DNA from: Vulcanimicrobiota bacterium
GTDB taxonomy: Bacteria; Vulcanimicrobiota; Xenobia; Xenobiales; JADMJV01
Assembly: GCA_017307785.1 (NCBI GenBank)
Contig: JAFKGI010000011.1
Coordinates: 124,001-188,000, forward strand
Length of the DNA: 64,000 nt
Direction of reading: 5' to 3'
In this document: positions 17,802 to 56,002 of the stretch, one piece after another
Numbering within the stretch: position 1 is the stretch's first letter
How the letters are laid out: each line of letters begins with the position of its first letter
Made by a program: the position numbers and the translations under genes
Notes under the pieces: model-generated
What the model was told of the DNA's origin: nothing
The model's input: only the letters and a program-made list of their open reading frames with translations
Database searches by the model: none

Positions 17802-18758
17802 TTGGCCAAAAAAATCGTGCTCCTGTGGCTGCTCACCCGCCTCGCCCTGTTCCTCACCGTCGGCTCCATCGCAGCCTGGAACCAGGGGGACGTGCACTTT
17901 TACCTGGAGATCGCCAGCACCGGCTACGAACCCGGCTTCCTCACCAACTGCGGCTGGTGCCCGGGCTTCCCGCTGCTCCTCCAGCTCGCCCCCGTCACCC
18001 TCAGCAACGCCCTGCTGATCAATAACCTCATACTGCTGGCCGCTCTGTTCATGGTTCACAAACTCAACCGTCTCGACCACGACGAAGACACCGCCTGGAA
18101 CGGCCTGCTGCTGCTGCTGGCCTTCCCCTCCGCCTACTTCCTGGCCGCCCCCCTCAGCGAATCTACCTTTCTCTTCTTCAGCGTCGGCGCGTTCTGGGCC
18201 GCCCGAAAAAAACACTGGCCCCTGGCCGGCCTGCTCGGCGGCGCCGCCACCCTCACCCGCGTCCAGGGCCTGCTGTTACTGCCCGCTCTGCTGCTAGAAA
18301 AGCCCACCAAAAAACAGGCCCTTTACCTGGCCGCAATACCGATCGGTCAACTCCTCTTCAACCTCCACCTGCAAACCACAACCGGCGACTTCTGGGCCTA
18401 CTTTCACGTCCAACAGCGACTCGAGCGCCACATCAGCGGCTGGAACCTGCTGAAAAACGGCCATGGACTGGCCGGTCCACACTGGGTCGGCCTGGCCTAC
18501 GCCGCCATCGCCCTGCTACTCCTCAAAATCACCTGGAAACAGCTGCGCAGCAGTGAAAAGTTCTACTGCCTGGCCTCGCTGTTTCTGCCCTTTTACCACT
18601 CTTTCTGGGTCTCCACGGGTCGCCTCATGATCGTGCTCACCCCGCTCTTCGCGCGCACTCCAAGAAAAGCAAGCCCCTGGATCCTGGCGACTCTTAGCAT
18701 CCTCCAGCTGATCCTGGCCGGCCTCTATTCATTAGCGAATCCTTACGTAATCTATTAG
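17802..18758 (+). CDS. PIG-V-like membrane mannosyltransferase family protein
   Basis: This 318-residue multi-pass protein starts at a TTG 12 nt after the previous stop. It opens LLWLLTRLALFLTVGSIAAW and has GDVHFYLEIASTGYEP, an acidic pair-containing extracytoplasmic loop after the first helix, then WCPGFPLLLQL and AAPLSESTFLFFSVGAFWAA. These are features of the GT-C fold glycosyltransferases related to GPI mannosyltransferase 2 (PIG-V), which use polyprenyl-phosphate sugars on the outer face of the membrane. The likely role is glycosylation of a surface protein or lipid. Acceptor and sugar are unknown. Pilin-like genes follow at once, which would make them possible acceptors. Confidence 0.65.
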   Translation: MAKKIVLLWLLTRLALFLTVGSIAAWNQGDVHFYLEIASTGYEPGFLTNCGWCPGFPLLLQLAPVTLSNALLINNLILLAALFMVHKLNRLDHDEDTAWNGLLLLLAFPSAYFLAAPLSESTFLFFSVGAFWAARKKHWPLAGLLGGAATLTRVQGLLLLPALLLEKPTKKQALYLAAIPIGQLLFNLHLQTTTGDFWAYFHVQQRLERHISGWNLLKNGHGLAGPHWVGLAYAAIALLLLKITWKQLRSSEKFYCLASLFLPFYHSFWVSTGRLMIVLTPLFARTPRKASPWILATLSILQLILAGLYSLANPYVIY

Positions 18759-18791: not shown

Positions 18792-20678
18792 ATGCGAAGC
18801 AAGCGGGGGATCGTCCTTGTCACCGTCCTCTTTTTCATCCTCCTGATCGGCATTCTCTCCCGAGCCATCCTCTCGGCCGGCCCTCTCGTTTCCCGCGTCG
18901 GCGGCCAGCTTTCCGAATCGCTGGTCGCCCAACGAGCCGCCGAAGCCGGCGCCTCCTACGCCTGCGCCCAGATCAAAGCCAAAAACGACTGGCGCGGAGA
19001 CAAAGACGCCGTTACCCTCAACCTGCCCGACCTCAAAGTTCAGGAAGACCACGGCAACGTCGTCGGCTGGATGAAGAACGCCGCCGGAACCATCAGTATG
19101 TTCCGCATTCGCTTCAACTTCCAGGACGGCACCATGACCGAAGGCCTGGACGATCCCAGCACTTTCTGGATCGACAGCCCCTACCTCTCGCTCAACTGCG
19201 TGCCCGCCCTGGTCAACAACGGAGTGGTGCCGCGCGCCAACTCCGGCCCCTCTCCCTGGGCCGTTTCCGCTCCCAGCGTCGGCTCCCTCACCCTCACCAC
19301 CAAGCGCGCCACCGTGGCCATCGAAGGCATCACCGGGCGCGCCCTGGAGGGCACCACCGGCCCCTGCAACCTTCCCAACGGCCAGCTCATCAAATGCGTC
19401 CTGCGCGTCGGCTTCGGAGCCTCTGGCAGCCCCACCGCCCCGGACTCGGTCATCAGCGCCGGCAACGGCATCGAAACCCAGACCAACACCACCACCAAAG
19501 TGGCCATCGTGGGCAGCGGTGTGGCCCGCCTGCGCACCAAGAAGGGCATCAACGTCGGCAAAGGCGACGGCTCGGTCAACATCCTCGACATGACCGGTGA
19601 AGCCGGCCGCGACACCAGCCTGGCCAACACCGGCCTCAACGCCACCCTGACCGGCTCGGTGACAGCCAAAACCGAAAGCGTCGGCGACGGCAAAGACTTC
19701 TACAACATCAAATGGAGCGACGTCCCCAAAGCCTCCAGCAACGAAAACGACGCCGTGCAGCTACCCGGCGGCATCTACGTCATGGCCATGGACGGCAAAG
19801 TTCGCTACTACGACGCCGACCCCAGCACATTCAAAACAATGGATCAAAGCGCCGGCTGCGTCACCATCAGCAGCTCCAACTTCAACGAAGTGCGCTCCAG
19901 CGCCAACCTGGGAGCCGTGCCCAGCGGCATCAAACTCGACTCCAGCACCTTCGCCATCAACGTCACCCAGGACCTCAACATCAAGACCTCCAGCAACGGC
20001 CACGCCGACGTCATGTTCACCGTTCCCTCGGGCCGCCCCATCTCCAAAGACGACACCGATAAGCCCTACGTCTCCTCCACCACTCCCATGAGCTTCTACG
20101 CCCCTGGCGTCCTGCAAATCAACGACGCCACCGTCTCCTGCGCCGGCAACATGACCGTGCTCACCAACGTCAAAGGCCGCAACGGCACCATCACCGCCGG
20201 CGGCAACTCCACCATCTGCGCGCCCTCGGTGGACATCGACATGACCTCGGCCTCGACGTTCACCCAGCGCCTCAGCGTCTACGTCAAAGGCGACCTCACC
20301 CTCTCCACCTGGCAGGACAACCCGGCCCTTCCCCCCTACGTGCCGGCCATTCGCGAATACGGCCCGCTCAAAGTCAAAGGCCTGGTCTACAGCTGGGGCG
20401 ACATGAACATCCTGGCCGGCACCAAAGACCAGACGGCCACTCCCGGCATCTACAAAGCCTCTTCCTTCGGCAACGTCAGCGTGACCGGAGCCCTGGTCGC
20501 TTACGGCGCCGATCCCAACGGCGGTTCCCCCGGAGCCGACAACAAAGGAGCGGTCAAAATCTACGGCGAGACGGCCGACATCATCTACGACTCCGCCTTC
20601 CTGACGCCCGGCACCACTCTGACCGCCGGTGCGCCCCTGCAAGGCATCACCCGAATCAGCTATGGCTTCGAACGCTAG
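18792..20678 (+). CDS. PilX-like minor pilin/pseudopilin with large beta-rich domain
   Basis: The 628-residue product begins MRSKRGIVLVTVLFFILLIG, a single hydrophobic helix after a short basic leader, then LSESLVAQRAAEAGASYACA. This matches the PilX/GspK-type N-terminus, which lacks the usual Glu+5. The rest is long, rich in Gly, Thr, Ser and Asn, and has regular strand repeats such as IVGSGVARLRTKKGINVGKG and YVKGDLTLST, suggesting a beta-helical surface domain. It is the first gene of a pseudopilin operon. The next gene starts inside its last 17 nt, implying translational coupling. A larger version of the same architecture is found at 56020. Confidence 0.75.
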   Translation: MRSKRGIVLVTVLFFILLIGILSRAILSAGPLVSRVGGQLSESLVAQRAAEAGASYACAQIKAKNDWRGDKDAVTLNLPDLKVQEDHGNVVGWMKNAAGTISMFRIRFNFQDGTMTEGLDDPSTFWIDSPYLSLNCVPALVNNGVVPRANSGPSPWAVSAPSVGSLTLTTKRATVAIEGITGRALEGTTGPCNLPNGQLIKCVLRVGFGASGSPTAPDSVISAGNGIETQTNTTTKVAIVGSGVARLRTKKGINVGKGDGSVNILDMTGEAGRDTSLANTGLNATLTGSVTAKTESVGDGKDFYNIKWSDVPKASSNENDAVQLPGGIYVMAMDGKVRYYDADPSTFKTMDQSAGCVTISSSNFNEVRSSANLGAVPSGIKLDSSTFAINVTQDLNIKTSSNGHADVMFTVPSGRPISKDDTDKPYVSSTTPMSFYAPGVLQINDATVSCAGNMTVLTNVKGRNGTITAGGNSTICAPSVDIDMTSASTFTQRLSVYVKGDLTLSTWQDNPALPPYVPAIREYGPLKVKGLVYSWGDMNILAGTKDQTATPGIYKASSFGNVSVTGALVAYGADPNGGSPGADNKGAVKIYGETADIIYDSAFLTPGTTLTAGAPLQGITRISYGFER

Positions 20679-21129
20679 AGGAGCCACGCTGGCCGAAGTC
20701 TTGCTCGGACTCGGACTGATCGCATTGGCCTTCTTCGCCCTGCTCAGCGTCTGCAGCCTGGGCATGCGCCTCAACGAGCAAAGCATGGTCTCCATCAAAG
20801 CGGCCCAGTTGGCCGACAGCGAATCCAGCCGCACCATCAGCAAAATCATCTACGACTCGCCGCCCGGCACCCAAAAAGACTTCTGGAAAGACCCGGTCAG
20901 CGGCCCCAACTTCCCCTACCCCACCACACCTTTCCGCAAAGGCGTCACCGACATCGGCAGCGACCAGCTCCACTTTGCCGTCTACGCCACCACCCTCAGC
21001 GGCATCGGCGGCGTGGCCGAAGACAACGTCGTCAGCCGGGTCGACACCTACGTGTGGTGGCGCGAAGACGGCCCCGGCAGCAAAATGACCAGCTGCACCC
21101 GCCTCTACGTCTACCTGGAGGACCAATGA
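20662..21129 (+). CDS. PilV-like type IV pilin/pseudopilin
   Basis: From the ATG at 20662 the 155-residue product reads MASNARGATLAEVLLGLGLI. G-ATLAE is a prepilin peptidase site with Glu at +5, followed by a 20-residue hydrophobic helix. The soluble part holds RTISKIIYDSPPGTQKDFW and ends VDTYVWWREDGPGSKM. It overlaps the upstream gene by 17 nt and the downstream gene by 4 nt (ATGA). The position between PilX-like and PilW-like genes matches the pilV slot of minor-pilin operons. An ATG at 20629 would add eleven residues without typical leader features, so it was not used. Confidence 0.8.
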   Translation: MASNARGATLAEVLLGLGLIALAFFALLSVCSLGMRLNEQSMVSIKAAQLADSESSRTISKIIYDSPPGTQKDFWKDPVSGPNFPYPTTPFRKGVTDIGSDQLHFAVYATTLSGIGGVAEDNVVSRVDTYVWWREDGPGSKMTSCTRLYVYLEDQ

Positions 21130-21923
21130 TGCGGCGGCGCGCCTTCACCCTGCTGGAATTGTGCCTGGCCGGGGCCCTGCTCACCCTCTTCATGTTCGTC
21201 GGCTACACCATGCTGCGCATGGCCGAGAAAGTCTACTACCAGGTTTCCGGCAACGAAGACGCCACCATGCAGCTCAAACGCGCCGTGCGCATGCTCCACA
21301 AAGACCTGATTTCGGCTCTGGCCGACACCGTCGGCTCGGCCGGAGCCCCGGCTCTCAACGTCGTCAACGTCCCCGCCAGCCTGCCCGGAGGCGCCTCAGA
21401 CGGCACCGGCGTGTGCCTGCTCAGCCCCTACCGCAACGGCTCCGGCGAAATGGTCATGAACACCGACGGACCCGAATGGCAACGCAACATCATCTACTAC
21501 ACCGTGGTGCCCGGCGGTGACCCCTGCGCCGGTGGCGCCGACGCCAACGGCTTCGACGACCGCTGCCCCCACAAAGTGCTGGTGCGCAAAGTCCTCAACC
21601 TGGGCACCACCCCCCAAACGCCCCTGCCCATCGGCTCGATTGCCGGCCACCTGACCCGCCCGCTCAGCCCCAAAGATATCTCCAATTTCAGCTCCGAAGC
21701 CAACCTCACCGAGTCGCAAATCGTGGCCCACGGCCTGGTCGGCCTGCGCGTTCAAACCCACTCCACCCATCCCGCCCTGATGCAAGACGAAGTGATCTTC
21801 ACCGTCACCGCCTTCAATCAGCCGCGCAGCCGCAAACTAGCCGTCGGCAGCGTCGCCCTCACCGGCCAACCCGGCTTTCTGGTCAACAGCATGGCCGTCT
21901 TCCCCCGCAACAACCGCCCCTGA
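21126..21923 (+). CDS. PilW-like minor pilin/pseudopilin
   Basis: The 265-residue protein starts MMRRRAFTLLELCLAGALLT, a consensus type III leader with FTLLE at the cleavage site. VQLK-like coiled residues (NEDATMQLKRAVRMLHKDLI) follow, usual for PilW/GspJ proteins. CTGGAGG lies upstream and the start overlaps the stop of the PilV-like gene in ATGA. The 3' end overlaps the convergent acyltransferase gene by 87 nt. With its two upstream partners it probably forms a pilus-tip or pseudopilus priming complex. No assembly ATPase or secretin is encoded nearby. Confidence 0.8.
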   Translation: MMRRRAFTLLELCLAGALLTLFMFVGYTMLRMAEKVYYQVSGNEDATMQLKRAVRMLHKDLISALADTVGSAGAPALNVVNVPASLPGGASDGTGVCLLSPYRNGSGEMVMNTDGPEWQRNIIYYTVVPGGDPCAGGADANGFDDRCPHKVLVRKVLNLGTTPQTPLPIGSIAGHLTRPLSPKDISNFSSEANLTESQIVAHGLVGLRVQTHSTHPALMQDEVIFTVTAFNQPRSRKLAVGSVALTGQPGFLVNSMAVFPRNNRP

Positions 21924-22994
21924 AAAACGCCCGCGCCAACTCTGAATGGGCCGCTCATAGAAAGTCCACAACAACGCCGCCACCGCAATCGTCAGCAGCG
22001 GCCCCAACCCGGCCCGCGGACAAGCCGGAAAAAGCACCAGCGCCGGATAGGCCTCCAACAGCCCGTCCAAGGTCGGATTGAGAAACGAATGCACCAGATA
22101 AGCCCCGTAAGACCACGTTCCGATTCGACGGAACGGTTTCCAGGCCAGAAAGCGCCCCAGCCAGGAGGCCCCGTTGTAGCGCAGTGAGGCCACCAGTGTG
22201 GGGATCAGCAGGCAATAGACGCTCTGATGCAGCGGCGGACGCCACTGCCCCCAGCGCGCAAAAGCCGTATCGTTCCAGGCCAAAGCCACCAGCCCCAGCA
22301 AACTCCCATACAGCGCCCAACGGCTCTCCAACCAGCGCCAGCGCCCGCGAAAATCCATCCAGGCAAACAAACAGCCCCACAGGATGTACTCTCCGGCCAC
22401 AAAAGGCAGCCCTCCGAAAAAACACAGCGGCGGCGCCGTCTTCAACAAAAACCAGCGAGCCCCCACGCAGAAAAGAATCCCTACGAGCAAAGCCCGCGTG
22501 CGCCACACCACCGGCCCGAACAACACGAACAGCGGATACAGCAAATAAAACTGCTCCTCCACGCACACCGACCAGAAATGAATGGCGTTGAAGTCCCGAT
22601 AATTCAGATATTCCACGAAAGCCGCCGGATCAGAGCAGCTCACCAGATAGATCTTCCAGTTCAACAAATAGGTCAAATGCCAGCCCAAATAGGGCACCCC
22701 TCGCCACCACTGGGCCAGGGCCAACACCAGATAATAGGCCGGCAAAATCCGCAAAGCCCGGCGAAAATAAAAAGTCGCCAGCGCCCGCCCGCGAGCCAGA
22801 CTCTCATAGCAAAAGAGCGTGTGGCTGATCAAAAAACCGCTCAGAGCAAAAAAGCAGGGAACCGACAAAGACAGCGCTCCCACTCGCGTGCCCGGAAACT
22901 TCTCGAACCAGTAATGCCCCTCCAGCACGGCCATCAGCAAAAAGAAGCGCAGACCCACATAGGCCGGGCAATAAAAACCCGCCTCCGACTTCAT
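21837..22994 (-). CDS. Acyltransferase-3 family membrane protein (copy 2)
   Basis: Integral membrane acyltransferases of this family O-acylate sugars of surface glycans. The product (385 residues from ATG 22994) has FYCPAYVGLRFFLLMAVLEG followed by HYWF, CFFALSGFLISHTLF, FYFRRALRILPAYYLVLALA (the RR..RI.P.YY motif), FWSVCVEEQFYLLYPLFVLF and WSYGAYLVHSF. The usual 'DGLR' reads VGLR here. The start overlaps the stop of the membrane protein gene at 22991 (ATGA), so both are coupled. The last 87 nt run under the convergent pilin gene. It is a paralogue of the gene at 23851-24915. The substrate is not known. Confidence 0.85.
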   Translation of the reverse strand: MKSEAGFYCPAYVGLRFFLLMAVLEGHYWFEKFPGTRVGALSLSVPCFFALSGFLISHTLFCYESLARGRALATFYFRRALRILPAYYLVLALAQWWRGVPYLGWHLTYLLNWKIYLVSCSDPAAFVEYLNYRDFNAIHFWSVCVEEQFYLLYPLFVLFGPVVWRTRALLVGILFCVGARWFLLKTAPPLCFFGGLPFVAGEYILWGCLFAWMDFRGRWRWLESRWALYGSLLGLVALAWNDTAFARWGQWRPPLHQSVYCLLIPTLVASLRYNGASWLGRFLAWKPFRRIGTWSYGAYLVHSFLNPTLDGLLEAYPALVLFPACPRAGLGPLLTIAVAALLWTFYERPIQSWRGRFSGAVVAGEDGHAVDQKAGLAGEGDAADG

Positions 22995-23863
22995 CTCCCC
23001 GGCCAACGCAACAACCCCACCAAATCCCCCCGCCGGGTACTGGAAATCAAATGCATCAAAGTCCAAAGATAGAAATTCTGCTCCTGAAACAACAGCCAGC
23101 CCAGGCCCTCGGCCCCAAACACCCCATAAAGACCGAGAACCAGAACATTCACCAGGGCCACCTGCCGCAGATAAACCCCCCGCCCCCGTTCCAGACTCAA
23201 ATAATAATGCAAATACCAGCTGAAATAATGAAACAAAATGATAAAGCCGCTCAACTTGGGAGCCTGCACCTGCTGCAGCCAACCCAGTTTGGCGGCCACA
23301 TCCAGACAACCGCCGGCCACCAGGAAATAGCAACTGCGCCCATCCGGCCGATACCTGGCGAAGCCGATCAGGGCCACGTAGGCCAGCAGCGACAAACTCG
23401 TCAACTGCAAGGCCGGCCCCATCAACTCCGGAAACTCTCGCCACACGCCGTGGGCCAACATCGCGTCCACCACCGCCGCCGCGTAAACCAGCATCAACGG
23501 CAGCATTTCCAACAAACGCCCCAGATGCAAAGGACTGCTCCGCAAACGCAAAGGCAATTCGCTCAAGTAAAACTCGTCCACCGCCATGTGCCAGGCAAAG
23601 TACACGGTCGCCACCGCCGTCAAGCCCGCCGCAAACGGATGCATCCAGTAAACCAGCAAAATCAAGCAGGCCCAGAAGCCGTAGTTCAGCACATACAAGG
23701 GACCTATCTTACCGGCCCGAAATTGGTAAAAATAGGCCAGCAGAAAATGCCCCTGACCCAGCACGATCATCAAACGGATCACCGAACGCCAGTCCAACCA
23801 GGCCACCAGCACGGCGGCCAGCCCCAGCGACAGCAACTTCTCGCCCCAAATCAGCCCTCGCAT
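22991..23863 (-). CDS. Polytopic membrane protein with conserved His/Asp residues, paralogue A
   Basis: From ATG 23863 the 290-residue product has about eight hydrophobic segments and no family I can name. It aligns without gaps over the first ~130 residues with the product of 24971-25834. Shared are VLGxxH (GQGHFLLAYFYQFRAGK), HMAVDEFYL, LRSSPLHLGRLLE, RPDG, FHYFSWYLHYYL and LWTLMHL. The conserved His, Asp and Glu residues near membrane segments suggest a metal-dependent membrane enzyme, which is inference. It lies between two acyltransferase-3 genes, overlaps the upstream stop and is coupled by ATGA to the downstream one. A TTG at 23881 is an alternative start. Confidence 0.7.
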   Translation of the reverse strand: MRGLIWGEKLLSLGLAAVLVAWLDWRSVIRLMIVLGQGHFLLAYFYQFRAGKIGPLYVLNYGFWACLILLVYWMHPFAAGLTAVATVYFAWHMAVDEFYLSELPLRLRSSPLHLGRLLEMLPLMLVYAAAVVDAMLAHGVWREFPELMGPALQLTSLSLLAYVALIGFARYRPDGRSCYFLVAGGCLDVAAKLGWLQQVQAPKLSGFIILFHYFSWYLHYYLSLERGRGVYLRQVALVNVLVLGLYGVFGAEGLGWLLFQEQNFYLWTLMHLISSTRRGDLVGLLRWPGR

Positions 23864-24915
23864 GCGACCGGTGCCAACCAATCTTTGGCCCGATTGGCCC
23901 GCTCCTCAAAGGTCACCCACATCAAGCCCGCCACCGCCAAAGACAACAACGGACCTCCCAGCGCCGGCGGCAGCGGCAAACGCTCCACCGGCCCGCTCAA
24001 AAACAAATGCACCAGATAGGTCCCGTAGGAAATCTTCCCCAACCGCACCAGCGGCCCCCAACTCAGCGCTCTCGTCAGCCAGGACCGCGGATGGTGACGC
24101 AGCCCCAGCACCACCAGACCCAGAGCCAGCGCATACAACGTCTGGTGGGCCGGCGGCCGCCACTGGGCATACTCATAGCGCTGCACGTCCGGATCCAGCC
24201 CGAACAGCAGCAACAAAACCAAGAACGCACCGTAAAAAGCCACCCGACCGCGCAGCCAGCCGGCCCGCTCCGAAAAATCCAGCCAGGCCAACCAGCAACC
24301 CCAGAGCAAATACTCACCTGGAACCGGCGTCAGCGCGCCATAACAAGAATCCGGGAAAGCCCGCATCAACCACAGTCGGCAGCCAATACACAAGGCCAGC
24401 CCCAGCCCCAGCAGCCATCCCCGCCAACCCCGCGGACTGCACCACAGCAACAGCGGATAGAGCAAATAAAATTGCTCCTCCACCGCCATCGACCAGAGAT
24501 GCACGCCATTGCCGCGCCAGCCGGCCATATACCCGAGAAATTCCGCCGAAGGCTGCAAACTCAACCAGAAAAGCTTGAAATTCAGTAGATAAGTCAACTG
24601 CCAGCCCAAATAGGGCACCGAAAGAAAACAGGCCGACACCAGCAAAACCACATAATACGCCGGAAAGACCCGTAGTCCCCGGCGAATATAAAAATCCATT
24701 AATTTGCGCCCGGACGGGCCGCCCGCCGCCTCGCTGCGCAGCAACAAATGGGTAATCAAAAACCCGCTGAGCACGAAAAAACAGCACAGCGCATAAGTCA
24801 AAAACCAGAAGCGCTCGATGGGCAGCCGATGCAAACAGTAGTGATACTCCAGCACGCCCAACAGCAACACGAAGCGAAGTCCATCGTAGGCGGGCACATA
24901 GAAGCGGGCGGCCAT
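23851..24915 (-). CDS. Acyltransferase-3 family membrane protein (copy 1)
   Basis: The 354-residue product shows the complete family pattern: FYVPAYDGLRFVLLLGVLEY then HYCL, CCFFVLSGFLITHLLL, FYIRRGLRVFPAYYVVLLVS, HLWSMAVEEQFYLLYPLLLW and ISYGTYLVHLFLSGP. It has about ten membrane helices. It resembles the acyltransferase at 21837 along its whole length, pointing to a local duplication. It is the first gene of the minus-strand trio and lies 55 nt from the divergent membrane-protein gene at 24971. The reaction is probably transfer of an acyl group to a sugar hydroxyl of a membrane-linked or secreted glycan; donor and acceptor are unknown. Confidence 0.87.
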   Translation of the reverse strand: MAARFYVPAYDGLRFVLLLGVLEYHYCLHRLPIERFWFLTYALCCFFVLSGFLITHLLLRSEAAGGPSGRKLMDFYIRRGLRVFPAYYVVLLVSACFLSVPYLGWQLTYLLNFKLFWLSLQPSAEFLGYMAGWRGNGVHLWSMAVEEQFYLLYPLLLWCSPRGWRGWLLGLGLALCIGCRLWLMRAFPDSCYGALTPVPGEYLLWGCWLAWLDFSERAGWLRGRVAFYGAFLVLLLLFGLDPDVQRYEYAQWRPPAHQTLYALALGLVVLGLRHHPRSWLTRALSWGPLVRLGKISYGTYLVHLFLSGPVERLPLPPALGGPLLSLAVAGLMWVTFEERANRAKDWLAPVACEG

Positions 24916-24970
24916 AGCGCCCCCTGTTCGTCACAGGACTCGCGGATGCATCCCAGAACTTCCTTCCCCG

Positions 24971-25834
24971 ATGCATCGGTCGATTGTGGCAGAAAAGCTG
25001 GCCTCCCTCGGACTGGCCGCCGCCATCGTCGGCTGCCTGCCCGTGTTCCCCGCCCAGAAAATCGCCTTCGTGCTGGGCCACGCCCACATTCTGGCCGCCT
25101 GGCTTTATTTCTACCTGGCCGGCAAAATGACCCGAACTTTCCTGCTCCAGTTTGGACTGCTCACTACAGCCCTGTTTGGCAGCTACCAGCTGATGCCCTG
25201 GTATCGCACCCTGGTTCTGGTCACCCCGCTGTTTTTTCTAGCCCATCTCTTGCTCGACGAAATCTATCTGCTGCAAACCCCCATCAACCTGCGCCGCTCG
25301 CCCATGCACATGGGCCGCTTCCTGGAACTGGCCACCTTCTTCGTGCTCTGCGGCGGCCAGATATTGCAAAGCCTGGGCTTCCCCGGCAGCCTGCCCAACA
25401 GCCTGGCTCTGGCCGCCGCCCTGGCCCTCGGCTACGTCATTCTGTGGGCCCGCGGCCTGCACCGGCCCGACCCGGGCAGCGCCTATTTCTGGAGCGCCAA
25501 CCTGCTCTTCCTGGCCCTAATCCTGGCCCCGCTGCGCTTCAACTACGTGGCCCTGATGTCGTTCCTCATCCTTTTCCACGTCTTCGACTGGTATTTCCAC
25601 TTCTATCTGCAGCTGCCCCCGGGCTCACCCGCCCGCCCCCAATACCTGCGGCGCGCCGGGGGCTTGATCGGACTCTCCGGCCTGCTCTACGCGGCCGGCC
25701 ACTTCCACTTCTGGGAAGCCGCCGCCAGCCTCTATGAGGAAACCACCTACGACCTCTGGAGCCTGGTCCACCTGACCTTTTCGCTGCGACTCAACGACGT
25801 AAAAGCCTTAATCAAAACCAGCCAGGAAGGTTAA
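24971..25834 (+). CDS. Polytopic membrane protein with conserved His/Asp residues, paralogue B
   Basis: This 287-residue protein is the second member of the unnamed family also encoded at 22991-23863. It has the same order of motifs: VLGHAHILAAWLYFYLAGK, AHLLLDEIYL, LRRSPMHMGRFLE, RPDPGSAYF, FLILFHVFDWYFHFYL and LWSLVHLTFSLR. About eight hydrophobic segments are visible. The gene is divergent from the acyltransferase at 24915 and leads, after 27 nt, into a GspF/PilC gene. The ATG has no clear ribosome-binding site. The repeated pairing of this family with acyltransferases suggests the two proteins work on the same envelope substrate. Confidence 0.7.
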   Translation: MHRSIVAEKLASLGLAAAIVGCLPVFPAQKIAFVLGHAHILAAWLYFYLAGKMTRTFLLQFGLLTTALFGSYQLMPWYRTLVLVTPLFFLAHLLLDEIYLLQTPINLRRSPMHMGRFLELATFFVLCGGQILQSLGFPGSLPNSLALAAALALGYVILWARGLHRPDPGSAYFWSANLLFLALILAPLRFNYVALMSFLILFHVFDWYFHFYLQLPPGSPARPQYLRRAGGLIGLSGLLYAAGHFHFWEAAASLYEETTYDLWSLVHLTFSLRLNDVKALIKTSQEG

Positions 25835-25861: not shown

Positions 25862-27064
25862 ATGTGGTACAGATTTCGCGCTCGCAAGAGCGACGGCAGC
25901 ACGGAAAACGGCTACTTAAACGCCAAGAATATCGGCGATGCCAAAAAACAGCTCACCGCTCGATTCGTGGCCATTCTGGAATTGACGGAACAGGCCAAAA
26001 GCAGCGAGAAGCCGTTTAAAGTTCCCCCGGACGTCATCAGTGGTTTCTTTCGCCGCCTGGCCGTCATGCTGCACGCGGGAATGCCGCTGGCCCAATCTCT
26101 GGACTACCTCTCCAGCTCCGAATCGGACGCCCAACTGGCCAAGGCTCTCGAAAAAATCTACCAGGAGGTATCGACCGGTCAACGCTTCAGCGTGGCCATG
26201 TGCCAGCCCCAGGTCAAGAACCTTTTTTCCAACGTCATGGTCGGACTGGTGCAACTGGGCGAAAGCACTGGCGCCCTGGTGGACTCGCTCATGCGCATTG
26301 CCGAATTGTGCGAAACCCAGCTGCGCCTGAGACGGGCGGTCGTCTCGGCGCTGACCTATCCCGCCTTCCTGTTCGCCGCCATCCTGGCCATGGGACTCTT
26401 CTTCACCCTGGTGCTCGCGCCCGGCGACGCCAATCTCTTCGCCTCCTTAGGCTCGGAGCTGCCCTGGCCCACCCAGGTCATGATCAACCTCTCGAGCATG
26501 CTGCGCAACCCCTTCTGGGTGGTGGGCGTCAGCGGCGGCCTGATCGCTTTGGTCTGGCTTTTCTTCTGGCAATTGCGCCGCAATGATAAATTTCGCCTTA
26601 AGATTCACCGTAAAATTCTGCGCATTCCCATCGTCGGCCCGTTGGTGCGCAAAACCGTGTCGGCACAAATGCTCTACGTCATTTCCTGCGCCCTGCAGGT
26701 GGGAATGACCACCACCGACGCCCTCAAATTAGCCCGCGAAGTGTGCATCAATTTAGAATTCCGGCAGCGCTTCGACGATGCCCTGCGAGCTTTCCGCGAA
26801 GGCGACGACCTCTCCGACGCCCTCTATCGTTACGAAGTCTTTCCCCACCTGGTCATCACCATGATCCAGATGGGCCTGGAGGTCGGCAACCTGGAGATCG
26901 TGCTCAGCAAAATCTCGGTGCTCTACGAAGAAGACGTCACCCAGTCGCTCACCTCGGCCACCCAGCTGGCCGAACCGATCCTGCTGGCCTTCGCCGGCGC
27001 CATGTCGGCCTTTCTGGCGCTGGCCACGCTGCTGCCCATCATCAACGTGGTCAACACCCTCTAG
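25862..27064 (+). CDS. GspF/PilC-family inner membrane platform protein
   Basis: The 400-residue product begins MWYRFRARKSDGSTENGYL, the short N-terminal domain of GspF/PilC. Two T2SSF domains follow, the first around FFRRLAVMLHAGMPLAQSLD and the second around MLYVISCALQVGMTTTDAL, each with a hydrophobic pair; the C-terminus is LAFAGAMSAFLALATLLPII. These proteins form the membrane platform that connects the assembly ATPase with the growing (pseudo)pilus. It lies 4 kb from the first pseudopilin operon and may serve it. A second, divergent homologue sits at 54860. Confidence 0.9.
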   Translation: MWYRFRARKSDGSTENGYLNAKNIGDAKKQLTARFVAILELTEQAKSSEKPFKVPPDVISGFFRRLAVMLHAGMPLAQSLDYLSSSESDAQLAKALEKIYQEVSTGQRFSVAMCQPQVKNLFSNVMVGLVQLGESTGALVDSLMRIAELCETQLRLRRAVVSALTYPAFLFAAILAMGLFFTLVLAPGDANLFASLGSELPWPTQVMINLSSMLRNPFWVVGVSGGLIALVWLFFWQLRRNDKFRLKIHRKILRIPIVGPLVRKTVSAQMLYVISCALQVGMTTTDALKLAREVCINLEFRQRFDDALRAFREGDDLSDALYRYEVFPHLVITMIQMGLEVGNLEIVLSKISVLYEEDVTQSLTSATQLAEPILLAFAGAMSAFLALATLLPIINVVNTL

Positions 27065-28364: not shown

Positions 28365-29459
28365 ATGAAAATCTCCAACTCCTCTCAACCCAATTACGAA
28401 TACACCACCTGGCTGGACGCCCCCACCCGCCAGCAGCAACCCCTCGACCCCTGGTCCCCCTTCCACGATCAGGCCCACTTCGAAGACGAAGAAGCCGGCG
28501 AGCTCTTCGACGAACCCCTGCTCCAACAACTCTTCCAGTCCTGGGCCCCGCCCGCTCCCCAGCCGGCCTACCAGCGCGCCGTGCAAAACTGGCCCCAACA
28601 CAACCAGCCCATCCAAAGGCGCTCCCAGCCCATACAAAACCGCCCGGCCCCGGCCCAACCCGCCCAAACGGCCCAAACTACCCCGGCACGCAGCGCCCCC
28701 AGCAGCACCACCCTCAACCTCCCGCCGCGCCCCGAAGGCTCCCTGACCGGCAAAGAATTCCTCGAAAGCACCCGTGGCCTCGACCGCACCCAGCGGGAAG
28801 CCCGCATCCTCCAGGAAATCCAGCGCGGCAACGTGCCCGACTTCGCCCGCCAGATGCGCGAAATCCAGGTCAACAGCAACGGCCACAGCGGCACCCTGCG
28901 CGTCATGCCCGACTACCTGGCTATCGGCTCCAATGACGACTTCGTGCGCATTCCCATGGACGCCAAAACCGCCCAGAAAATCGCCGACCAGACCGGCACC
29001 AGCCTGCCCACCACCAAAATCGTGGACGAAGTCTACAAACAGGCCGACACCAAACTCACGCCCCAGCCCCTGCCCGCCGGCGCCCAAATGATGTCCAACG
29101 ACTATTACCAACGGCACAACAACCTGGTCGAAGACCAGATGTCCCAGCGCGGCGCCCAGCATGGCCAGCTCACGGCCGGCCACCAGAAAGACCTGGTCAT
29201 CTCCAACCGCCTGACCCAACATCCGGATCGGGTCGCCATCTACGGCTGGCACCAGCCCAACGGCAAACCCATTCAGGGCCTCAGCACAGTCCACGAAAGC
29301 ACCTACGCCGACTACAGCCACGGCGTCCGCCTGGTGGGCGGCACTATGCTCGTCGACGGCCAGGAACGTCCCGTCTCCGAAGTGCTCCAGGACCCGGCCC
29401 TGGCCGGCCTCATCAGCAGCGAGGGCGCCATCCGCGACCCCCGCGTTCCCCGAACCTAG
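28365..29459 (+). CDS. Conserved hypothetical protein with Pro/Gln-rich N-terminal half
   Basis: The 364-residue product has no signal peptide. Residues 1-130 are low-complexity and rich in Pro, Gln and Ala (PAPAQPAQTAQTTPARSAPS). The C-terminal ~230 residues form a well-structured region: MPDYLAIGSNDDFVRIPMDA, LTAGHQKDLVISNRLTQHPD, RVAIYGWHQPNGKPIQGLST and YADYSHGVRLVGGTMLVDG. I have an impression that this core (GHxKD, GW.....PIQ.LS..H, YADYSHG) recurs in uncharacterised proteins of many bacteria, but I cannot name a function. The His, Asp and Ser residues in HQKD, VHES and DYSHG could form an active site. GAGGTCTCGAG precedes the ATG. Confidence 0.6.
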   Translation: MKISNSSQPNYEYTTWLDAPTRQQQPLDPWSPFHDQAHFEDEEAGELFDEPLLQQLFQSWAPPAPQPAYQRAVQNWPQHNQPIQRRSQPIQNRPAPAQPAQTAQTTPARSAPSSTTLNLPPRPEGSLTGKEFLESTRGLDRTQREARILQEIQRGNVPDFARQMREIQVNSNGHSGTLRVMPDYLAIGSNDDFVRIPMDAKTAQKIADQTGTSLPTTKIVDEVYKQADTKLTPQPLPAGAQMMSNDYYQRHNNLVEDQMSQRGAQHGQLTAGHQKDLVISNRLTQHPDRVAIYGWHQPNGKPIQGLSTVHESTYADYSHGVRLVGGTMLVDGQERPVSEVLQDPALAGLISSEGAIRDPRVPRT

Positions 29460-54859: not shown

Positions 54860-56002
54860 ATGACTCTCATCGTATCGTCGGTCCAGGTGAGCGGAGCTAA
54901 CCCGCGCCGTCAGGCTACGGCCCCGCGGCCCAACGTCAAACTCAGCCAGGTCGAGCAAACGCGCCCGAAAGCTGAGTCTAAAACCGTTTTCCTGCGTTCC
55001 CTCTCGACCATGGTGCTGGCCGGCGTCACCGTCGACCGGTCTCTGGACTATCTGGCCGACCAATCCGACGACCCCAAACTGGCCGAAGTCTGCCGCGGCA
55101 TGGCCCAGCGCATCCAGGCCGGCTTTCCTCTCTCGGCCGCCATGAACTGCTACCCTCGCGCCTTCAGCAAACTGCAACTCCGCCTCGTCCAGATGGGCGA
55201 AAAAACGGGCTTGCTCGACCAGGTCTTGCTGGAGCTCAGCCGCTACGAAGAAAAAGAGCGCGCTCTCGTGCTCAAAGTCAAAAGTGCCCTGGGCTATCCG
55301 GCCTTCATCTTCGTCATCGCCATGGCCATGATGATCACCATCCCGCCCTATATCATGAAGGGCATGTTCGAACTGATCTCCGGTTCCGGAGTCGAGCCGC
55401 CCTTGCTCACCATCGTAGTCATGAAAGTGACCACCTTTCTGCGCAGCCCGGCCTTCTACATCGGCTCGGTTCTCTTCGGCACTCTGGCCTACTTTGCGGT
55501 CCCCGCCTGGTATCGCAAACGCGACAATCAGCGCCTGGTCTCTCAATGGATTGAAAAGATCCCCGGACTCGGCCCGGTCTATCGAGGGGTTGCGCTGGCT
55601 CGCTTCTCGCGAGCGCTCAGCGTTCAGATCGAATGCGGTTTGGGACCGGTCAACGCGCTGGCCATCTCCGCCGAGGTCACCGAAAACCCCATCCTGATCG
55701 ACTCCGTCAAAGGCGCCTCAGAACTGCTGCACCAGGGCGAAGGCTTCGCCGACAGCCTCGAATCCACCGGATTTTTTCCCAAACTTATGCTAAACATGGT
55801 AAAGGCGGGCGAAGAATCAGCCACCCTGGGAGACCTGCTGCAGAAGGCCGCCGAGATGTATGAGGCCGAAGTCGACCACTCACTGGACATCTTTACGGCC
55901 ATGCTGGAACCGGCCATCATGGCGCTGATCGGCTTGATGGTGGGCACGCTGGTGCTGGCCACCATGCTGCCGATGACTCAAGTCATCGAGAGCATGCACT
56001 AG
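54860..56002 (+). CDS. GspF/PilC-family membrane platform protein (second copy)
   Basis: The 380-residue protein has two T2SSF domains (LRSLSTMVLAGVTVDRSLDY and ARFSRALSVQIECGLGPVNA) with membrane helices SALGYPAFIFVIAMAMMITI and MALIGLMVGTLVLATMLPMT. The conserved 'm...GE.tG.L...L' appears as LVQMGEKTGLLDQVLLELS and MVKAGEESATLGDLL. Its N-terminal ~45 residues differ from the GspF domain of the homologue at 25862. GGAGGG lies 11 nt before the ATG. Three pilin-like genes and a kinase follow in a tight operon, for which it is the likely membrane platform. Confidence 0.88.
   Translation: MTLIVSSVQVSGANPRRQATAPRPNVKLSQVEQTRPKAESKTVFLRSLSTMVLAGVTVDRSLDYLADQSDDPKLAEVCRGMAQRIQAGFPLSAAMNCYPRAFSKLQLRLVQMGEKTGLLDQVLLELSRYEEKERALVLKVKSALGYPAFIFVIAMAMMITIPPYIMKGMFELISGSGVEPPLLTIVVMKVTTFLRSPAFYIGSVLFGTLAYFAVPAWYRKRDNQRLVSQWIEKIPGLGPVYRGVALARFSRALSVQIECGLGPVNALAISAEVTENPILIDSVKGASELLHQGEGFADSLESTGFFPKLMLNMVKAGEESATLGDLLQKAAEMYEAEVDHSLDIFTAMLEPAIMALIGLMVGTLVLATMLPMTQVIESMH

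What the first reader, a model, noticed from the sequence alone, without database searches (positions are those of the whole stretch)
21837..25834. Duplicated module of acyltransferase-3 and an unnamed His-rich polytopic membrane protein
Two acyltransferase-3 genes (21837-22994, 23851-24915) and two paralogous polytopic proteins (22991-23863, 24971-25834) form an interleaved block. One pair is coupled by ATGA, the other is divergent. The unnamed family keeps VLGxxH, HxxxDExYL, LRxSPxHxGRxLE, RPD, FHxFxWYxHxYL and LWxLxHL in both copies although the rest has drifted. Retained His, Asp and Glu residues next to membrane helices look like a metal or acyl-chemistry active site. The family could be a new partner enzyme of surface glycan acylation.
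Basis: partly seen in the sequence, partly recalled or inferred. Interest (0 to 1): 0.75.

Follow-up and report, generated by a model that had tools for sequence, protein, structure and literature searches.

The report
Unnamed four-histidine membrane family beside acyltransferases
Next to two sugar- or lipid-acylating enzymes, a little-known environmental bacterium carries two copies of an undescribed membrane protein whose four invariant histidines look like a buried metal site, so it is probably a new membrane enzyme that works on lipids or lipid-linked sugars, although this is untested.

Summary
The window has two AT3 acyltransferases (21837-22994 -, 23851-24915 -) and two paralogous polytopic proteins, FamA (22991-23863 -) and FamB (24971-25834 +), with every quoted motif present. 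The unnamed family has no Pfam, NCBIfam, PHROG or PDB-sequence match.

The pairs co-segregate: FamA with AT3a, FamB with AT3b, and a third genome keeps only FamA and AT3a.

Clear homologues exist in CPR genomes. They lie beside Lnt and PAP2_C, beside FA_hydroxylase and UbiA, or beside SecDF. None lies beside AT3.

Across nine sequences four His and one Asp are invariant. A good AlphaFold model (pLDDT 87, pTM 0.85) puts the four His on helices 2, 4, 8 and 10, all of the same orientation, and no solved structure matches. The pattern resembles the Brp/Blh beta-carotene dioxygenases (weak: hhalign probability below 1%, but better than about 98% of decoys, while three control families show nothing).

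Best reading: a membrane-embedded metalloenzyme acting on lipid-phase substrates, working here with AT3 on a surface glycoconjugate. Metal site strongly suggested; chemistry and substrate inferred.

The parts
21837..22994 (-). AT3a: standalone acyltransferase-3 (PF01757), partner of FamA; R-X10-H present, Asp of the DxxR motif replaced by Val
   Evidence: Pfam E 1.7e-12; orthologues 61-66% in G002 and G004, always next to FamA; motif. Its 3' end overlaps the convergent pseudopilin gene by 87 bases.
22991..23863 (-). FamA: 290-aa, 10-TM protein of the unnamed four-His family; invariant H39, H92, D96, H212, H271
   Evidence: No Pfam/NCBIfam/PDB-sequence match and only a sub-threshold PHROG match; alignment of nine homologues; AF2 model pLDDT 87, pTM 0.85; ATGA overlap with AT3a.
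23851..24915 (-). AT3b: standalone acyltransferase-3 (PF01757), partner of FamB; DGLR and R14-X10-H25 intact
   Evidence: Pfam E 1.3e-22; orthologue 64% in G002, absent from the G004 locus together with FamB; motif.
24916..24970 (.). 55-base divergent intergenic region between AT3b and FamB
   Evidence: Sequence read directly.
24971..25834 (+). FamB: 287-aa paralogue of FamA; same invariant residues (H39, H92, D96, H203, H267)
   Evidence: 33% identical to FamA; orthologue 45-49% in G002; alignment.
25862..27064 (+). Flanking PilC/GspF-type inner-membrane protein (T2SSF); close orthologues only in the genomes that have the module, plus a more distant one in G006, which has the island without the module
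   Evidence: Pfam E 1.6e-48; distribution; G006 locus.
18792..21923 (+). Flanking minor-pseudopilin-like genes of the same pilus/secretion island (upstream side of the module)
   Evidence: Type IV pilin-like N-termini read directly; a counterpart lies beside the module in G004, and counterparts flank no module in G006. No Pfam match.
17802..18758 (+). GT-C glycosyltransferase-like protein, resembles PIG-V mannosyltransferase (below Pfam cut-off)
   Evidence: PF04188 E 2.5e-4, 21.0 bits against a cut-off of 22.4; a similar-looking protein (no Pfam match) lies directly beside AT3a in G004.

Best explanation
FamA and FamB are membrane-embedded metalloenzymes. Four invariant histidines on helices 2, 4, 8 and 10, helped by Asp96 one turn after the helix-4 His, hold a metal (most likely iron) inside the bilayer, where the enzyme oxidises or otherwise modifies a lipid-phase substrate: a lipid acyl chain, an isoprenoid chain or a lipid-linked sugar. 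In this bacterium each copy works with its own AT3 acyltransferase, which carries an acyl group across the membrane, so that a surface lipid or glycoconjugate is both acylated and modified. Shown: the family, its invariant residues, its helical arrangement (model), and its pairing with AT3 within the genus. Inferred: that metal is bound, which metal, the reaction, the substrate, and a shared pathway with AT3. The fold is possibly that of the Brp/Blh dioxygenases; this is a suggestion only.
For: Nine homologues with identity down to 20% keep four His, one Asp and Trp-Tyr invariant, which is a catalytic or cofactor pattern rather than a structural one. In the model (pLDDT 87, pTM 0.85, five models at 84-87) all four His fall within helices that are even-numbered, so these helices run in the same direction and the His lie at similar depth. 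Homology between the members of this genus and the CPR members is firm in both directions. Gene neighbours are lipid or acyl enzymes in most contexts: AT3, Lnt and PAP2_C, FA_hydroxylase and UbiA. FamA-AT3a and FamB-AT3b co-segregate across three genomes. Resemblance to Brp/Blh, a His-dependent membrane oxygenase: native profile score beats 295 of 300 decoys with relocated motifs and 298 of 300 with permuted ones, and all four motifs fall within 2 columns in only 3 of 300 and 0 of 300 decoys. AT3, Lnt and PAP2_C controls score like their decoys. In Blh, replacing His21, His78, His188 or His192 leaves under 5% activity (PMC9227343).
Against: hhalign gives the Brp/Blh match a probability below 1% and HMMER ranks the best BCD protein only at E 0.29, so there is no accepted sequence homology to any enzyme. 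Invariant His could bind heme instead. AT3 is not a neighbour outside the genus, and one CPR homologue sits between SecDF and DsbB-like genes with no lipid enzyme beside it.
Confidence: 0.45

Rival explanations
1. The four His bind two b-type hemes (bis-His pairs on helices 2/4 and 8/10), as in heme A synthase or cytochrome b561-type proteins, and the protein passes electrons to a lipid-modifying partner.
For: Four His on same-orientation helices in two pairs, spaced 53 and 59 residues, is the arrangement of diheme four-helix bundles (own knowledge).
Against: Foldseek against all solved structures, which include many membrane cytochromes b (own knowledge), gives no match with E <= 0.001. No COX15 or cytochrome b Pfam match. 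Asp one turn after His and invariant Trp-Tyr beside His are not typical of heme ligands (own knowledge).
Confidence: 0.13
2. It is a second acyltransferase (MBOAT-like or TmAT-like), handing acyl groups from AT3 to an acceptor.
For: Neighbour of AT3 and, in CPR, of Lnt. How AT3 proteins without an SGNH domain reach the acceptor is unresolved (introduction of PMC9833829). Ten helices, as in TmAT.
Against: No fold match to any solved structure, among them HGSNAT. The TM1 R-X10-H of AT3 is absent. Profile comparison with AT3 scores no better than decoys (118 of 150 decoys as good). Four invariant His exceed what either acyltransferase family uses (own knowledge).
Confidence: 0.1
3. It is a true Brp/Blh carotenoid-cleaving dioxygenase that supplies an apocarotenoid, which AT3 and the glycosyltransferases attach to sugar.
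For: Four-motif correspondence, spacing and helix positions. One CPR homologue follows FA_hydroxylase and UbiA genes.
Against: Not significant by hhalign or HMMER, and not found by PF15461. Lacks the family's PHGA.D, HFG..D, H..RH and TVPH residues apart from the His. No rhodopsin or carotenoid gene was recognised beside it (not searched genome-wide).
Confidence: 0.07
4. It is a non-enzymatic partner: a flippase, channel or scaffold that presents the acceptor to AT3.
For: Polytopic, and pairs one-to-one with AT3. VTT-domain, GT87-like and PIG-V-like genes nearby point to lipid-linked glycan export.
Against: Invariant residues are His, Asp, Trp and Tyr in four helices, not the pattern of a scaffold. 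No transporter fold match. CPR homologues have no AT3 beside them.
Confidence: 0.12
5. The module is cargo that hitch-hiked into a pilus island, and FamA/B have no functional link to AT3 or the pilus.
For: G006 has the island without any AT3 or Fam gene between pseudopilin and PilC genes. Outside the genus the neighbours differ.
Against: Each paralogue keeps its own AT3 across species, and the genes overlap by 4 and 13 bases in one operon.
Confidence: 0.13

Closest known systems
Brp/Blh beta-carotene 15,15'-dioxygenase (PF15461, BCD)
   Same: Polytopic, four His-bearing motifs in the same order with similar spacing (53/120/59 residues in FamA, 53/111/64 in FamB, 57/110/68 in Blh), on every-other helices; full-length profile alignment puts the motifs within two columns.
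   Different: No significant sequence match. The other conserved residues differ. No rhodopsin gene seen beside it.
Acyltransferase-3 / TmAT superfamily (PF01757)
   Same: Adjacent genes, about ten membrane helices.
   Different: No R-X10-H motif, no fold match to solved members, no profile similarity.
Membrane fatty-acid hydroxylases and desaturases (PF04116 and relatives)
   Same: His-based metal chemistry on lipids; one CPR homologue lies one gene away from a PF04116 protein.
   Different: Lacks the HxxxH/HxxHH box clusters; its His are single ones on four helices. No fold match to any solved structure.
Heme A synthase / cytochrome b type four-His proteins
   Same: Two pairs of His on same-orientation helices.
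   Different: No fold or Pfam match.

Membership tests
Brp/Blh (PF15461) | Match to the Pfam model above its cut-off | tested here: not met
   No match for any of nine members up to E 10; own genome has no PF15461 match; known Blh and two proteins of the phylum do match.
Brp/Blh (PF15461) | Profile-profile similarity | tested here: inconclusive
   hhalign probability 0.2-0.5%, but score above 98-99% of decoys and motifs in register.
Brp/Blh (PF15461) | Four essential His (21, 78, 188, 192 in Blh) in PHGA.D, HFG..D and H..RH motifs | tested here: not met
   His present in three corresponding motifs plus a fourth matching TVPH, but the surrounding signature residues and the H...H pair of the third motif are absent family-wide.
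Brp/Blh (PF15461) | Same fold | not testable with these tools
Brp/Blh (PF15461) | Cleaves beta-carotene to retinal | not testable with these tools
   Needs an assay.
Acyltransferase-3 / TmAT (applied to FamA/B) | R-X10-H in TM1 | tested here: not met
   Absent from the alignment; present in the neighbouring AT3 proteins.
Acyltransferase-3 / TmAT (applied to FamA/B) | TmAT fold | tested here: not met
   No Foldseek match to any solved structure at E <= 0.001, HGSNAT being in the PDB as 8JKV.
Acyltransferase-3 (applied to 21837-22994 and 23851-24915) | PF01757 above cut-off and R-X10-H | tested here: met
Membrane heme proteins (COX15/CtaA, cytochrome b561) | Family model or fold match | tested here: not met
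Fatty acid hydroxylase (PF04116) | Pfam match and clustered His boxes | tested here: not met
   No match; His are single and on four helices.

The most novel reading that the evidence does not exclude
A previously undescribed family of intramembrane four-His metalloenzymes, with a fold not represented among solved structures, shared by Eremiobacterota-like bacteria and CPR bacteria, in which paralogues have evolved one-to-one partnerships with standalone AT3 acyltransferases to build a doubly modified surface glycolipid.
Probability: 0.3. Interest if true: 0.7.

Novelty: new variant of a known kind. Interest (0 to 1): 0.5.

Why it matters
How AT3 proteins without a fused SGNH domain pass the acyl group to its acceptor is an open question (PMC9833829). 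A conserved one-to-one membrane partner gives a concrete candidate for study. Independently, a rare membrane family with an invariant four-His/Asp set and no match in the PDB would be a new intramembrane metal site, possibly extending the poorly understood Brp/Blh oxygenases beyond carotenoids.

Tried and rejected
First structure model from five rows was poor (pLDDT 68) and matched nothing in the PDB or the viral library; it is not used. A genome-contig search with FamA alone found no relative; the alignment search found the CPR ones. Even sampling of CPR phylum and class found no further members; sampling of close relatives found two more lineages. Viral contigs and plasmids: none. A weak match in G1016 with internal stops was discarded as chance. 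The DUF2070, Allatostatin, Hobbit and PHROG matches are single, sub-threshold and not shared by other members. Brp/Blh membership was considered and not claimed. Identification by 16S failed because none was found in the assembly; the phylum is inferred from relatives.
Full report
OBSERVATION. AT3b (24915-23851), FamA (23863-22991) and AT3a (22994-21837) look like one minus-strand operon with overlaps of 13 and 4 bases, the latter being ATGA. FamB (24971-25834) is divergent from AT3b across 55 bases. Both acyltransferases match PF01757 and keep R-X10-H of helix 1, which is absolutely conserved in AT3 domains (PMC9833829). AT3a and its orthologues have Val in place of the Asp of DxxR; AT3b has the Asp. 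FamA and FamB are 33% identical and have no Pfam, NCBIfam or PDB-sequence match and only sub-threshold PHROG matches.

ORGANISM. The assembly is 7.65 Mb in 82 contigs and no 16S gene was found in it. The phylum includes a 3.5 Mb single-contig genome with a Blh gene, which fits Vulcanimicrobium alpinus of Eremiobacterota, 3.50 Mbp with a rhodopsin (PMC9758169). The assignment to Eremiobacterota is therefore an inference.

DISTRIBUTION AND PAIRING. In 149 genomes of the phylum the family occurs only in G000, G002 and G004, all of one genus. G002 has FamA and FamB with three AT3 genes; G004 has FamA and one AT3. FamA orthologues are 60-64% identical, AT3a orthologues 61-66%, FamB orthologues 45% and AT3b orthologues 64%. 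The AT3 of G004 is AT3a-type (61-63% against 42%) and its locus lacks both FamB and AT3b. The A/B split is older than the species split, so the co-segregation of each paralogue with its own AT3 is evidence of partnership, though from only three genomes.

PILUS ISLAND. The module sits between pseudopilin-like genes and a PilC/GspF gene. Close orthologues of that PilC (74-100%) are found only in the three genomes with the module, and a 47% one in G006 of another family. In G006 the interval between pseudopilin and PilC genes holds a sensor kinase and a response regulator and no AT3 or Fam gene, so the module was either added to this island or lost from it. A link to pilus function is possible but not shown. 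Nearby genes include a PIG-V-like and a GT87-like protein, both just below Pfam cut-off, and a VTT-domain protein.

DISTANT RELATIVES. Profile searches found homologues in CPR-type genomes: L010, L011 (labelled Paceibacterota), L030 (an identical protein in a second genome, L037) and L031. A model from the five genus proteins alone scores L011, L010, L030 and L031 at E 4e-23, 4e-19, 4e-17 and 7e-4 for a million sequences, and the CPR-only model scores FamA at 2e-32. Neighbours are Lnt (divergent) and PAP2_C in L010 and L011, FA_hydroxylase and UbiA with an overlapping start in L030, and SecD, SecF and a DsbB-like gene in L031 (names read from sequence). There is no AT3 in these loci. That L010, L030 and L031 are CPR is inferred from their small genomes and from being reached as relatives of the Paceibacterota genome.

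ANATOMY. Invariant across nine proteins: G36, H39, Y46, H92, D96, H212, W216, Y217, Y231 and H271. The model of FamA from this alignment is good (pLDDT 87, pTM 0.85). Counting helices from the N-terminus, H39 is on helix 2, H92 and D96 on helix 4, H212 on helix 8 and H271 on helix 10. All run in the same direction and the His lie in the middle to C-terminal part. Foldseek found no solved structure with E <= 0.001 (best TM-score about 0.2).

COMPARISON WITH BRP/BLH. The four His motifs recall Brp/Blh. That idea came from memory and was then tested. The typed Blh sequence matched PF15461 and was aligned with BCD proteins from fetched loci. Standard hhalign is not significant. A full-length alignment places all four motifs within two columns. 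Relocating the motif blocks gave a score as high in 5 of 300 decoys, or in 2 of 300 with permuted order, and the same register in 3 and 0 of 300. AT3, Lnt and PAP2_C profiles gave no such excess. No solved Blh structure was found by sequence, so the lack of a PDB fold match does not count against this idea. Because the hypothesis was chosen after seeing the motifs, these frequencies overstate its support.

CONCLUSION. The family is real, conserved and unnamed, and probably a membrane metalloenzyme on lipid-phase substrates. In this genus it is tied to AT3 acylation. Metal, reaction and substrate are unknown.

Noticed in passing
G000-G006, query window 25862-27064: Each of these 7.4-8.4 Mb genomes carries 19-28 PilC/GspF (T2SSF) homologues, an unusually large set of pilus or secretion islands; a second copy is in this window at about 54983-55993 (+).
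   Followed up: partly
window 28365-29459 (+); L006 1288-2391 (-): A conserved 364-aa protein without a Pfam match, next to the same island in G002; its C-terminal half is nearly identical between species, its N-terminal half is Pro/Gln-rich and drifting.
   Followed up: no
window 21837-21923: AT3a has a C-terminal extension that overlaps the convergent pseudopilin gene by 87 bases; the G002 orthologue lacks it.
   Followed up: no
L006 6303-7634 (+): G002 has a third AT3 gene at this locus, 41-46% identical to the other two types and without a Fam partner of its own.
   Followed up: partly
L011 8275-9565 (+); L010 1888-2535 (+): CPR-type bacteria carry PAP2_C (sphingomyelin synthase-like) genes, two in tandem in L011, opposite an Lnt gene: a small lipid-modification cluster of unknown role.
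   Followed up: no
L030 645-2957 (+), identical in L037 1214-3526: FA_hydroxylase, UbiA and Fam genes overlap in a three-gene run in a CPR-type genome; could be a lipid or isoprenoid pathway.
   Followed up: partly
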